Part shown: positions 17,199 to 19,795 of the stretch, in pieces
Layout: each line of letters begins with the position of its first letter
Numbering within the stretch: the stretch's first letter is position 1
Assembly: GCA_030584085.1 (NCBI GenBank)
Contig: CP129490.1
Span: 2,203,511-2,267,510, forward strand
DNA from: Melioribacteraceae bacterium
Lineage (GTDB): Bacteria > Bacteroidota > Ignavibacteria > Ignavibacteriales > Melioribacteraceae
Direction: 5' to 3'
DNA: 64,000 bases
Program-made: the position numbers and the translations under genes
Notes under the pieces: generated by a model
Database searches by the model: none
The model's input: only the letters and a program-made list of their open reading frames with translations
Told to the model about the DNA's origin: nothing

Positions 17199-18542
17199 AT
17201 GCTAAAAAAGATATTAACCTCTATCTTCTTTTTCATCCTCTCACTTTCTATCTATCCCCAAAGAGCGACTCAACCTGGTGATTTTACATACGATGATTTT
17301 GAAACTCCACAATATTGTGGTTCTTCATGCCATACAGAATTTTACCAACAATGGCAGCAAGCGATGATGTCGCAAGCATACACACATCATTGGGATGAAA
17401 TTGAATACTTCAAACTCGCCGTTCCTCATGCCGAAAGAGATGAGATGGTAGCAGAAGTGAAAGACGGTTGCAATGGTTGCCACACACCGATAGCTTATAT
17501 TGCCGGTGATACACCTCCACCCTTCCCCCACGAAAACTCCCGAGCTAATGAATCTGTATCATGCGATGTTTGTCATACAATTACTGGTTTTGAGGGAGAT
17601 ATTCCCTATAATTTTAATTACATCATGTCTCCCGGAAAAACAAAATATAGTTCTCGTAAAGGAGATATTGATTCACCTGCTCATCAAATTGTCCGATCCG
17701 AATTTCATAAATCAGGAGACTTTTGCGGTATTTGCCACAACGAAAAAAGTCCTTATGATGCTTGGGTAAAATCAACTCACCTTGAATGGAAAGAAGGTCC
17801 TTATTTCAAAGAAGGTGTTCAATGCCAAGATTGTCATATGACAAAAACTAAATTTAAAAGTGCTTCAATGGGATTAACTTATGAAGATACAAAACTTCAT
17901 CTATTCCATGGTGCTCATGATGAAGGTAAAGTAAAAGGAACAATTGAAGTAAGAATTAATCCCGATATCCGTGAAGTTGAACCGGGTGAAGTTGTAAAGT
18001 TCACTGTAGCTCTTTTCAATCAAAAGACCGGGCATAAATTTCCGACCGGTTCAGTTGAAGATAGAATCGTTTGGCTGCATGTTGAAGCTACTGATTCAGA
18101 AGGGAATGTTTATCATCTACCGGTAGACAAGAAAGGATTTGATGGCGAGGAATATACAATCGCTGCCGATGTTTTAGCTTATCAAGATATGGGCATTGCT
18201 CTGGATGATCCAAATTTTAAAGGAGTCCAGCGAGATGCCGTTCCGGTTGGAGATCGAATTTTTAGGATGCCTTATTTCGATCCTCAAGGTAGAATGACAA
18301 TTCAGCAGTGGAATACTAAATCGCTTGGTGTAGATTATCGAATTGGACCAAGAGAAACTCAGACGGAAACTTTCACTTTCAGACTGCCCTATGAAATAGC
18401 AGAAGGTAAAGTAAAGGTAAAAGCTACAATTAACTATCAGAAGCTTGTTTCTTCAGTTGGTGAATTTTTAGAAGTACCTGAAGATGAAATGGAAATAATA
18501 AAAGTCGGTGAACACAGCACAGAATTTACAGTCTTCTATTAA
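17199..18542 (+). CDS. Multiheme c-type cytochrome (c554-like)
   Basis: A 447-residue exported protein with a signal peptide ending near SIYPQ. Four standard heme sites are seen (CNGCH, CDVCH, CGICH, CQDCH) plus a fifth, first-in-order CGSSCH that has three residues between the cysteines. The N-terminal half matches cytochrome c554-like multihemes, and the C-terminal half (about 245-447) is a beta-rich domain with TGHKFPTGS. It probably carries electrons in the periplasm or at the outer membrane. It is followed after 13 nt by a heme-bearing outer-membrane barrel, and the two share a terminator, so they should form one electron-transfer unit. The ATG has GGAG before it. Confidence 0.9.
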   Translation: MLKKILTSIFFFILSLSIYPQRATQPGDFTYDDFETPQYCGSSCHTEFYQQWQQAMMSQAYTHHWDEIEYFKLAVPHAERDEMVAEVKDGCNGCHTPIAYIAGDTPPPFPHENSRANESVSCDVCHTITGFEGDIPYNFNYIMSPGKTKYSSRKGDIDSPAHQIVRSEFHKSGDFCGICHNEKSPYDAWVKSTHLEWKEGPYFKEGVQCQDCHMTKTKFKSASMGLTYEDTKLHLFHGAHDEGKVKGTIEVRINPDIREVEPGEVVKFTVALFNQKTGHKFPTGSVEDRIVWLHVEATDSEGNVYHLPVDKKGFDGEEYTIAADVLAYQDMGIALDDPNFKGVQRDAVPVGDRIFRMPYFDPQGRMTIQQWNTKSLGVDYRIGPRETQTETFTFRLPYEIAEGKVKVKATINYQKLVSSVGEFLEVPEDEMEIIKVGEHSTEFTVFY

Positions 18543-18555
18543 TGGAGGAATTAAA

Positions 18556-19740
18556 ATGAAAAGAATTGTTGTAAACATATTTATTGTATCTATATTATTG
18601 GTATTATTTTCCGATACAATTTTAGCAATTCCGGCTTTTGCTCGGAAATATAATATGAGTTGTACTACGTGTCATGCACCCGCACCAAGACTAAAAGCTT
18701 ACGGAGATGAATTTGCCGGTAACGGATTTAAACTTTCGGATCAACAAAATCCGCGTTATTATGTTGATACAGGTGATGATGAACTATCACTTATTCGAGA
18801 CTTCCCTCTTGCTGTAAGATTAGAAGGTTTAGTTACCTATAACAATAATAATTCTGATAAGGCAGATTTTAATGCACCATATAATCTAAAATTATTATCA
18901 GGCGGAGAAATTGCACCCGATATAGCTTATTACTTTTATTTTTTCTTCAGTGAACGCGGACATGTTGCGGGAATAGAAGATGCCTTCATTATGTTTAATA
19001 ATTTATTCGGTTCCGAACTTGATTTATATGTCGGTCAGTTTCAAGTTTCCGATCCACTTTTCAAAAGAGAACTTAGATTAACTTTTGCCGATTATGATAT
19101 TTACAAAACTAGTATCGGCGCGTCGCGTATAAATCTAGCATACGATCGTGGAATAATGTTAACATACGGTTTTGATACTGGTACAGACATAATAGTCGAA
19201 GTATTAAACGGAACAGGAATCGGTGATGCCGATGCATTGAAAAATTTTGATTACGACAAACATAAAAACTTTGCCGGAAGAATCTCGCAAGATGTGAGCG
19301 ATTTTTTACGAATTGGTGGTTTTGGTTATTATGGAAAGGAAGATTTAGAGCAAGGCGGCGATTATTTTACAAATGAAGTTTGGTATGCCGGTGCTGATCT
19401 AACTCTCAGCTATGAAGATCTTGTTGAATTAAATGCGCAGTATCTCTTAAGAAATGATTCACATCCTTTGTCCAAAACTCTTTACTCCTTTAATGAAGAT
19501 ATTAAGACTAAAGGAATATTCGGAGAATTAATTTATACGCCGGAAGGTGATAAAAGTAAATGGTATGCATCAGCTTTATACAATTGGCAAGAATCCGACT
19601 TGCCCGGATATAATCTTTCAAAAGCTACTGGTCACATTGGCTGGGTAGTAAGAAGAAATATTAGATTATTCTGTGAATTTAGTTATGATATTGAATATGA
19701 ATTTGGTCAAATTGGTGTAGGGTTTATTTCAGCTTTCTAA
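18556..19740 (+). CDS. Outer-membrane beta-barrel protein with an N-terminal c-type heme site
   Basis: A 394-residue protein with a signal peptide, then a single heme motif CTTCH in SCTTCHAPAPRLKAYG (about residues 34-48). The rest is made of alternating aromatic and polar strands typical of a porin-like barrel (for example ELDLYVGQFQVSDPLF, YYFYFFFSERG), ending in a C-terminal aromatic (Phe at residue 394). ATG at 18556 is preferred because GGAGG sits at 18544-18548; the frame extends upstream into the cytochrome gene. Such fused heme-barrels could pass electrons across the outer membrane, in partnership with the cytochrome encoded just upstream; this is inference. Confidence 0.82.
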   Translation: MKRIVVNIFIVSILLVLFSDTILAIPAFARKYNMSCTTCHAPAPRLKAYGDEFAGNGFKLSDQQNPRYYVDTGDDELSLIRDFPLAVRLEGLVTYNNNNSDKADFNAPYNLKLLSGGEIAPDIAYYFYFFFSERGHVAGIEDAFIMFNNLFGSELDLYVGQFQVSDPLFKRELRLTFADYDIYKTSIGASRINLAYDRGIMLTYGFDTGTDIIVEVLNGTGIGDADALKNFDYDKHKNFAGRISQDVSDFLRIGGFGYYGKEDLEQGGDYFTNEVWYAGADLTLSYEDLVELNAQYLLRNDSHPLSKTLYSFNEDIKTKGIFGELIYTPEGDKSKWYASALYNWQESDLPGYNLSKATGHIGWVVRRNIRLFCEFSYDIEYEFGQIGVGFISAF

Positions 19741-19766
19741 GCTGAGATTAAAGGGAGGTACACAAG

Positions 19767-19795
19767 AGGCGGACATTTGTTCGCCTTTTTTATTT
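19767..19795 (+). terminator. Terminator of the cytochrome operon
   Basis: AGGCGGACA pairs with TGTTCGCCT (one G-T pair) and is followed by TTTTTATTT. It lies 26 nt after the barrel gene stop and overlaps the end of the convergent PGPGW gene by a few bases. Confidence 0.75.

What the first reader, a model, noticed from the sequence alone, without database searches (positions are those of the whole stretch)
17199..19740. Multiheme cytochrome with a CX3CH site paired with a heme-bearing outer-membrane barrel
The first heme-like motif is CGSSCH, confirmed in the DNA as TGT GGT TCT TCA TGC CAT, one residue longer than CXXCH. The downstream barrel carries one CTTCH at its mature N-terminus. Together they could move electrons across the outer membrane in a route different from MtrCAB.
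Basis: partly seen in the sequence, partly recalled or inferred. Interest (0 to 1): 0.55.

Follow-up and report, generated by a model that had tools for sequence, protein, structure and literature searches.

The report
Pentaheme cytochrome paired with heme-plugged porin
Two neighbouring genes encode a five-heme cytochrome with one slightly stretched heme site and an outer-membrane channel that carries its own heme; the pair is kept together in many bacterial groups and probably passes electrons across the outer membrane, by a known kind of channel in an unfamiliar partnership.

Summary
CGSSCH is encoded at 17316-17333 and is no sequencing error: CX3CH stands at this site in 90 of 93 distinct orthologues that keep it, 3 have CXXCH, and 11 of 11 distant relatives with a full front have CXXCH first. 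It is a one-residue insertion into an ordinary heme site, fixed in one family. CX3CH itself is not new: it binds heme in MmcA (PMC11024163) and typifies ImcH (PMC6295460). P1 is a secreted pentaheme cytochrome whose best solved match is T. tepidum c552 (5ze8, E 4e-9), with weaker likeness to Geobacter ExtKL. P2 is a Cyc2-like fused monoheme cytochrome-porin: Cyc2 signature motif and a predicted 16-strand porin. P2 follows P1 in 72 of 80 loci, over about eight groups by record title; of 395 genomes 25 have both, 1 has P2 alone, none P1 alone. No third gene is shared. Best reading: a soluble redox compound enters P2's pore, exchanges electrons with the plug heme, and P1 carries them in the periplasm. 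Direction and substrate are unknown. My paper searches found no report of this pairing.

The parts
17199..18542 (+). P1: secreted pentaheme c-type cytochrome (447 aa) with signal peptide (by eye), no lipobox seen, and a beta-rich C-terminal region
   Evidence: profile match to 5ze8; no lipobox-like pattern in 94 of 94 orthologues
17316..17333 (+). heme site 1, CX3CH (CGSSCH, residues 40-45)
   Evidence: CX3CH in 90 of 93 orthologues, CXXCH in 3
17367..17369 (+). Met57, possible axial ligand: Met in 92 of 93 orthologues, His in 1; by ungapped reading His in 4 of 5 nearest relatives
   Evidence: but MAFFT aligns the relatives' His with invariant His63 instead, so the ligand may be His63. Inference
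17469..17483 (+). heme site 2 CNGCH (residue 91)
17562..17576 (+). heme site 3 CDVCH (residue 122)
17724..17738 (+). heme site 4 CGICH (residue 176)
17823..17837 (+). heme site 5 CQDCH (residue 209)
17937..18539 (+). C-terminal beta-rich region (about residues 247-447), perhaps the Ig-like domain of the c552/ExtKL-type family
   Evidence: strands in a model of low overall confidence, some blocks above pLDDT 85; the Ig assignment rests on homology and PMC11976967
18556..19740 (+). P2: Cyc2-like fused monoheme cytochrome-porin (394 aa)
18661..18675 (+). P2 heme site CTTCH inside the plug AIPAFARKYNMSCTTCHAPAPRLKAYG
   Evidence: motif definition from PMC8406198
18811..19737 (+). barrel, residues 86-394, 16 long strands by my count of the listed elements
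   Evidence: AlphaFold model mean pLDDT 79.9; general-porin fold, OprP Z 25.2
19764..19789 (+). terminator-like hairpin after the two-gene unit
   Evidence: 11 pairs then T-run; consensus match only

Best explanation
P1 and P2 are a two-gene redox unit of the outer membrane. P2 is a 16-strand porin whose N-terminal monoheme domain sits as a plug at the periplasmic end of the pore, as proposed for Cyc2. A small soluble redox compound enters the pore from outside and exchanges electrons with the plug heme. P1, a soluble periplasmic pentaheme cytochrome of the c552/ExtKL type, is the dedicated partner that passes electrons between the plug heme and the periplasmic chain. The CX3CH is a heme c site made by inserting one residue into a CXXCH site. 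A change just after it may also have given one P1 heme a Met ligand (residue 57), but this is one of two readings of the alignment. Shown: the sequence features, their conservation, gene linkage and co-occurrence. Predicted: the barrel. Inferred: plug position, heme loading, P1-P2 contact, electron flow. Direction is open; I lean slightly to outward flow (about 55:45) because many carriers are related to heterotrophs or anaerobes (recalled) and the ExtKL relatives are tied to reduction.
For: P2 downstream of P1 in 72 of 80 named loci, 4 to 326 nt away; of the 8 others 5 end within 200 nt of P1 and 3 continue without P2. Of 395 genomes 25 have both, 1 only P2, 0 only P1. The exception, G039, has an 18-residue stretch like the end of P1 just before P2 (56% identity, E only 0.05, so its place is the main argument). 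Correlated divergence, r 0.61 over 81 loci, 0 of 2000 permutations as high, though common descent alone gives some of this. P2 has AXPXFAR[Q/K][T/Y], CXXCH and PXL, resembles two proteins with the FARQT plug over about residues 8-147 (E 2e-17 and 7e-19), 16 long strands, and OprP and OprO, the templates named for Cyc2, at the head of its VIA list. P1 matches 5ze8 at E 4e-9 and the ExtKL model at E 7.6e-14. CX3CH swaps with CXXCH at the same place in three scattered tips of the tree, which fits a heme site; CXXXCH carries heme in MmcA by mass (PMC11024163).
Against: No direct evidence of heme, contact or electron flow. P1 scores 51 bits against ExtKL's cut-off of 250. The P1 model is poor (pLDDT 48.8), so the heme layout was not checked. 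OprP and OprO tie within 1 Z with other porins (Omp32 24.5, chitoporin 24.2) and stand only at ranks 15 and 16 in Foldseek, so the fold says general porin, no more. P1 is damaged or nearly gone while P2 persists in two genomes (G015, G039), and P2 has an in-frame stop beside an intact P1 in one (G012); G015 and G012 are counted as 'both' above. 3 of 80 loci carry P1 without P2 next to it. The window's genome has another set of EET-like genes.
Confidence: 0.55

Rival explanations
1. P1 is an enzyme (an oxyanion reductase in the manner proposed for ExtKL) and P2 is mainly the selective channel that lets the substrate in, its heme serving as a sensor or side relay.
For: ExtKL/ExtI in Geobacter is the nearest known pairing of such a cytochrome with a porin, one weakly similar to phosphate-selective porins; loss of ExtI lowers selenite and tellurite reduction (PMC5877670, passages). 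The pentaheme family of cable bacteria was classed as potentially catalytic with a pentacoordinate heme (PMC11976967). Anion porins (OprP, OprO, Omp32) are among P2's top fold matches.
Against: ExtI has no heme motif (PMC5877670) whereas P2's CXXCH is present in 73 of 73 examined, so the plug heme should matter. P1 is far below the ExtKL cut-off.
Confidence: 0.25
2. The unit is specifically a dissolved-Fe(II) oxidase pathway, P2 being a Cyc2 and P1 its periplasmic acceptor, with electrons flowing inward to a terminal oxidase.
For: P2 meets the published Cyc2 sequence criteria that I could test. [quoted passage not shown] two of our loci are DeMMO MAGs (L039, L053). All 22 P1-positive genomes of 58 have COX1. 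If Met57 is a ligand, a higher-potential heme would fit.
Against: COX1 is also in 32 of 36 relatives without P1. In the same family of genomes the protein with the FARQT plug is a different gene, behind a small cytochrome c (L178, L180). Carriers include Aminicenantes and Saccharicenans, which I do not recall as iron oxidisers.
Confidence: 0.15
3. The CX3CH site carries no heme (a structural disulfide or metal site), so P1 is a tetraheme protein.
For: The motif is atypical; I found no biochemical data for this family.
Against: It aligns residue for residue with CXXCH heme sites of the five nearest relatives and is CXXCH in three orthologues. Cys, Cys and His are invariant in 93 of 93. CXXXCH is heme-loaded in MmcA.
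Confidence: 0.05

Closest known systems
Cyc2 fused cytochrome-porin (Fe(II) oxidase family; PMC8406198)
   Same: N-terminal monoheme plug with AXPXFAR[Q/K][T/Y]-CXXCH-PXL, 16-strand porin, length above 365 aa
   Different: P2 has FARKY, pairs with a pentaheme cytochrome encoded just upstream, and aligns with two FARQT-plug proteins only over about the first third; iron oxidation untested
Thermochromatium tepidum pentaheme cytochrome c552 (PDB 5ze8) and the pentaheme family with ExtKL, sPHC/lPHC and AvECN (PMC11976967)
   Same: five heme sites followed by a beta-rich C-terminal region; profile match E 4e-9 to 5ze8, E 7.6e-14 to the ExtKL model
   Different: site 1 is CX3CH, against CANCH in the 5ze8 alignment; the SMH stretch reads AMM or SMM; far below the ExtKL cut-off
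ExtI-ExtKL of Geobacter sulfurreducens (PMC5877670)
   Same: an ExtKL-type cytochrome encoded near an outer-membrane porin weakly similar to phosphate-selective porins
   Different: ExtI has no heme motif; the Geobacter cluster has many more genes; here only two genes are shared between loci. I had no ExtI or ExtKL sequence to compare, so whether ExtKL has CX3CH is not known to me
MtrCAB / OmbB-OmaB-OmcB porin-cytochrome complexes
   Same: barrel plus multiheme cytochrome proposed to cross the outer membrane
   Different: barrel here is smaller and carries its own heme motif; no outer-surface multiheme partner next to it; the window's genome has a separate multiheme cluster with a possible barrel
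ImcH and MmcA as CX3CH precedents (PMC6295460, PMC11024163)
   Same: one CX3CH among CXXCH sites in a multiheme cytochrome
   Different: other kinds of protein: inner-membrane quinol oxidase and archaeal Rnf-linked cytochrome

Membership tests
Cyc2-like fused cytochrome-porin | AXPXFAR[Q/K][T/Y] motif shortly before CXXCH | tested here: met
   P2 reads AIPAFARKY; full motif in 52 of 73 homologues, P.FAR[QK][TY] in 66 of 73; criteria from PMC8406198
Cyc2-like fused cytochrome-porin | single CXXCH and PXL just downstream | tested here: met
   CTTCH and PRL in P2; pattern in 73 of 73
Cyc2-like fused cytochrome-porin | length at least 365 aa | tested here: met
   394 aa; 68 of 73 pass; of the 5 shorter, L039, L043 and L048 are cut by the contig end
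Cyc2-like fused cytochrome-porin | 16-strand porin domain | tested here: met
   16 long strands in the model, pLDDT 79.9; porin matches, OprP Z 25.2 rmsd 3.1 over 297 residues, tied within 1 Z with other porins. Prediction only
Cyc2-like fused cytochrome-porin | placement in Cyc2 clusters 1-3 by FeGenie HMM or tree | not tested
   HMMs and reference sequences not at hand
Cyc2-like fused cytochrome-porin | Fe(II) oxidation | not testable with these tools
   needs purified protein
ExtKL equivalog (NF040886) | score above curated cut-off of 250 bits | tested here: not met
   51.1 bits
ExtKL equivalog (NF040886) | selenocysteine (in-frame TGA), as proposed for the Geobacter protein | tested here: not met
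   open frame without internal stop; the model's name '(seleno)protein' suggests that it is not obligatory
Pentaheme c552/ExtKL/ECN-related superfamily | sequence homology to a solved member | tested here: met
   5ze8 E 4.1e-9; 8e5g E 0.0028 (that 8e5g is an ECN is recalled)
Pentaheme c552/ExtKL/ECN-related superfamily | five heme sites in the N-terminal half | tested here: met
   five sites, residues 40-213; the first is CX3CH
Pentaheme c552/ExtKL/ECN-related superfamily | C-terminal Ig-like domain | tested here: inconclusive
   beta-rich, partly confident; Foldseek gave mixed matches at low TM-score, 5ze8 not among the 50 shown
MtrCAB/PCC conduit | heme-free large barrel threaded by a periplasmic multiheme cytochrome | tested here: not met
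   P2 has its own CXXCH and 16 predicted strands

The most novel reading that the evidence does not exclude
A streamlined outer-membrane electron conduit of only two proteins and six hemes, spread over about eight groups of bacteria, in which a Cyc2-type plug heme exchanges electrons with a dedicated pentaheme cytochrome whose docking heme was retuned by a one-residue CX3CH insertion, perhaps with a His-to-Met ligand swap; it works outward, letting heterotrophs respire dissolved extracellular acceptors, so that Cyc2-type porins are not by themselves markers of iron oxidation.
Probability: 0.25. Interest if true: 0.72.

Novelty: new variant of a known kind. Interest (0 to 1): 0.5.

Why it matters
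Cyc2-like genes serve as markers of iron oxidation, and one survey counted Ignavibacteriales and Zixibacteria as capable of iron oxidation and reduction, the oxidation genes found there being mostly Cyc2 (PMC8478452, passages). A Cyc2-like porin tightly linked to an ExtKL/c552-type pentaheme cytochrome gives such genes a specific, testable partner and may mean another function. The natural change between CX3CH and CXXCH inside one family makes it possible to ask what the extra residue does to a heme.

Tried and rejected
Sequencing error as the source of CX3CH: rejected. MtrCAB or PCC membership: rejected on barrel size and heme. ExtKL membership: rejected on the curated cut-off. Structure of P1: the model from 19 close sequences was too poor (pLDDT 48.8); its fold search gave generic matches at low TM-score, so I draw nothing from it about the hemes. 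Regulation: six recalled boxes in 92 upstream stretches of 200 nt. FNR-like with two or fewer mismatches: 35 against about 21 in shuffles; CRP-like 12 against about 5; weak matches and six motifs tried, so I claim no regulator. A third conserved gene: none seen; the next family reached 10 of 80 loci within the flanks held. Coupling to other EET genes in 58 genomes: ImcH-like 21 of 22 with P1 against 25 of 36 without (Fisher p 0.02; three tests, relatedness ignored); possible PCC barrel 20 of 22 against 29 of 36; COX1 22 of 22 against 32 of 36: no firm link. P1-positive there means the 22 genomes with a clear orthologue out of 23 with any match; G048 (E 1.5e-13) was set aside. Single-sequence searches of the PDB gave nothing for P1 or P2, nor did the P2 profile beyond one unrelated match at E 0.31. 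Pfam gave P2 nothing above threshold; 2 of 42 family members match BBP2.

Rows dropped before counts: one search left out P1 pieces under 400 aa, collapsed rows with the same last 300 residues, and left out L001 and L112; L020 (site 1 lost) is not among the 93; L029 (front cut off) is not among the 11. One search also left out L020 and seven distant rows; long outgroup branches make rooting unsure, and starred branches alone force only one change for the CXXCH label. Co-occurrence (lists copied by hand) took P1 at E below 1e-70 and P2 at E below 1e-60, setting aside four weak P1 matches and many weak Cyc2-like ones; at most 4 candidates a genome were scored in those two calls. The gap count sees deletions against the window's protein (two places in residues 40-215), not insertions.

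Papers: passages only of PMC6295460, PMC10734462, PMC5877670, PMC6137239, PMC10654088, PMC6344600, PMC8478452, PMC11475568, PMC5566968, PMC11024163; passages and one section each of PMC8406198 and PMC11976967; term look-ups without hits in PMC12442345, PMC5492636, PMC9084895. 'Not reported' rests on search listings 29, 30, 31, 58, 59, 87, 92 of one open-access library and the passages named; most listed papers were not opened.
Full report
Observation. The window has two co-directional genes, 17199-18542 (P1) and 18556-19740 (P2), 13 nt apart, each with a purine-rich stretch just before its start (sequence), and a terminator-like hairpin at 19764-19789. The gene upstream runs the other way. P1 has four CXXCH sites and, first, CGSSCH at 17316-17333. 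P2 has one CXXCH, CTTCH, about 12 residues into the mature protein by my reading of the signal peptide.

Is CX3CH real? Of 58 genomes (the window's own and relatives) 23 have a match to P1. Of the 20 close copies that keep the front of the gene, the window's own included, 17 have CX3CH and 3 have CXXCH (L010, L012, L016). In the genome collection 277 relatives were found and 80 kept: CX3CH in 78 of the 79 that have the site. Pooled and made distinct: 90 of 93 CX3CH and 3 CXXCH; one further gene has lost the site; 11 of 11 distant relatives with a full front have CXXCH as their first motif. Aligned to the five nearest of these, the family differs by exactly one added residue between the cysteines. 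On the tree the three CXXCH members are scattered tips, so the change back probably happened more than once, although strongly supported branches alone do not force it. Site 1 is therefore most likely a derived, conserved and loaded heme site: CXXXCH carries heme in MmcA by mass spectrometry (PMC11024163, passages) and ImcH homologues typically have one CX3CH (PMC6295460, passages).

A second feature beside it. Read without gaps from the tryptophan, four of the five nearest relatives have SMH where the family has [AS]MM (residue 57 the last); residue 57 is Met in 92 of 93 orthologues and His in one (L110); the fifth relative, L024, also has Met, and 5ze8 has SMH (alignment). This could be a swapped axial ligand. 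Against it: MAFFT places a six-residue gap there and aligns the relatives' His with His63, invariant in 93 of 93, in which case the ligand was kept and merely moved. I hold the swap as possible only.

What P1 is. Pfam sees Cytochrome_C554 and related pieces; NCBIfam's best is ExtKL at 51 bits against a cut-off of 250. One sequence alone finds nothing in the PDB; a profile of 19 orthologues finds the pentaheme cytochrome c552 of Thermochromatium tepidum, 5ze8, E 4e-9, and 8e5g at E 0.0028 (that 8e5g is an archaeal filament cytochrome is recalled). A cable-bacteria paper joins ExtKL and related cytochromes in one pentaheme family with an Ig-like domain and notes their structural likeness to the T. 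tepidum c552 and an archaeal nanowire protein (PMC11976967, section 14). P1's C-terminal half is beta-rich, but the model is poor. No lipobox-like pattern was seen in 94 of 94 orthologues, so P1 is probably soluble in the periplasm.

What P2 is. The Cyc2 paper gives AXPXFAR[Q/K][T/Y], CXXCH and PXL, at least 365 aa and a 16-strand porin as marks of Cyc2-like proteins (PMC8406198, section 12 and passages). P2 has all of these: full motif in 52 of 73 family members and its core in 66 of 73, CXXCH with PXL in 73 of 73, 16 long strands at mean pLDDT 79.9. OprP and OprO, the templates named for Cyc2, head the VIA list at Z 25, but other porins tie within 1 Z and Foldseek puts them at ranks 15 and 16. 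Similarity to two proteins with the FARQT plug from another genus of the same family is E 2e-17 and 7e-19 over about the first third. Broader Cyc2-like plugs are common in the phylum: 102 of 395 genomes have some match.

The two as a unit. P2 lies downstream of P1 in 72 of 80 loci, 4 to 326 nt away; 5 of the other 8 run out of contig within 200 nt and 3 do not. By record titles the carriers include Ignavibacteriota, Bacteroidota, Kapabacteria, Zixibacteria, Calditrichota, Aminicenantes/Acidobacteriota, KSB1 and Glassbacteria; nearly all are MAGs, whose labels can be wrong (one 'Clostridiales' record groups with Aminicenantes), and other taxonomies merge some of these groups. In 395 genomes of the phylum 25 have both, one has P2 alone and none has P1 alone. 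The exception, G039, has an 18-residue stretch like the end of P1 just before P2 (E 0.05). No third gene family is shared by more than 10 of 80 loci in the flanks held. Distances correlate (r 0.61 over 81 loci), in part from shared ancestry.

Against a strict partnership: P1 is damaged in G015 and nearly gone in G039 while P2 is intact, and P2 carries an in-frame stop in G012 while P1 is intact.

Setting. One match to P1 was found in the window's genome and one to the P2 profile at E 1e-5, with 4 of 12 candidates scored. The genome also has a large multiheme cluster elsewhere (L203): an NrfH/NapC-domain seven-heme protein with CX3CH first, resembling the published description of ImcH; proteins of 19, 16, 14, 7 and 4 heme sites (the 7 include one CX4CH); a cytochrome b; and a 421-aa protein that may be a barrel. 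That last protein is in 49 of 58 genomes, whereas P1 orthologues are in 22 of 58, so P1-P2 looks like an optional extra.

Mechanism. A single plug heme cannot bridge the membrane like a decaheme wire; for Cyc2 the proposal is that the dissolved substrate enters the pore (PMC8406198). I take the same for P2, with P1 as its periplasmic partner. Direction is not decided by the data. The closest rival is an ExtKL-like reductase with a channel: ExtI, beside ExtKL, is weakly similar to phosphate-selective porins, and its loss lowers selenite and tellurite reduction (PMC5877670, passages), but ExtI has no heme motif.

Novelty. Each part is a known kind. My searches turned up no description of a Cyc2-like porin with an adjacent pentaheme cytochrome; Cyc2 homologues in Ignavibacteriaceae have been listed (PMC6344600, passages), as have iron-oxidation genes in Ignavibacteriales (PMC8478452, passages). 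I rate it a new variant of a known kind.

Noticed in passing
L203:14433-15929 (G000:C1:702432-703925 without stop): A second CX3CH cytochrome in the same genome: 498 aa, CGTVCH first then six CXXCH, NapC/NirT domain, resembling the published description of ImcH; matches at E 1e-40 in 46 of 58 genomes.
   Followed up: partly
L203:4727-14071: A multiheme gene cluster (19, 16, 14, 7 and 4 heme sites, a cytochrome b, a 421-aa possible barrel), perhaps the main EET-like set of this genome.
   Followed up: partly
L181, L182, L184: In genomes of two other families of the phylum (f26: L181, L184; f24: L182), Cyc2-like heme barrels with FARKY plugs lie near genes that look by eye like a ferredoxin and a cytochrome b, in L182 and L184 also a Rieske-like protein.
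   Followed up: no
L178:2571-4391, L180:2970-4807: Another Cyc2-like protein, with the FARQT plug, sits behind a small monoheme cytochrome c; genome G417 has both this and the P1-P2 pair.
   Followed up: partly
L177:4440-5666 (G039): P2 intact with only an 18-residue stretch like the end of P1 before it.
   Followed up: yes
L020/L107 (G015) and L005/L092/L148 (G012): Decay of single members: front end of P1 lost in G015; an in-frame stop in the plug region of P2 in G012.
   Followed up: partly
G049:C1:3408564-3410753 (L026), G052:C11:908-3393 (L027, L031): Distant pentaheme relatives of about 530-630 aa, CXXCH only where read, whose matches lie within 2.5 kb of each other in two genomes; I did not look for a barrel beside them.
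   Followed up: no
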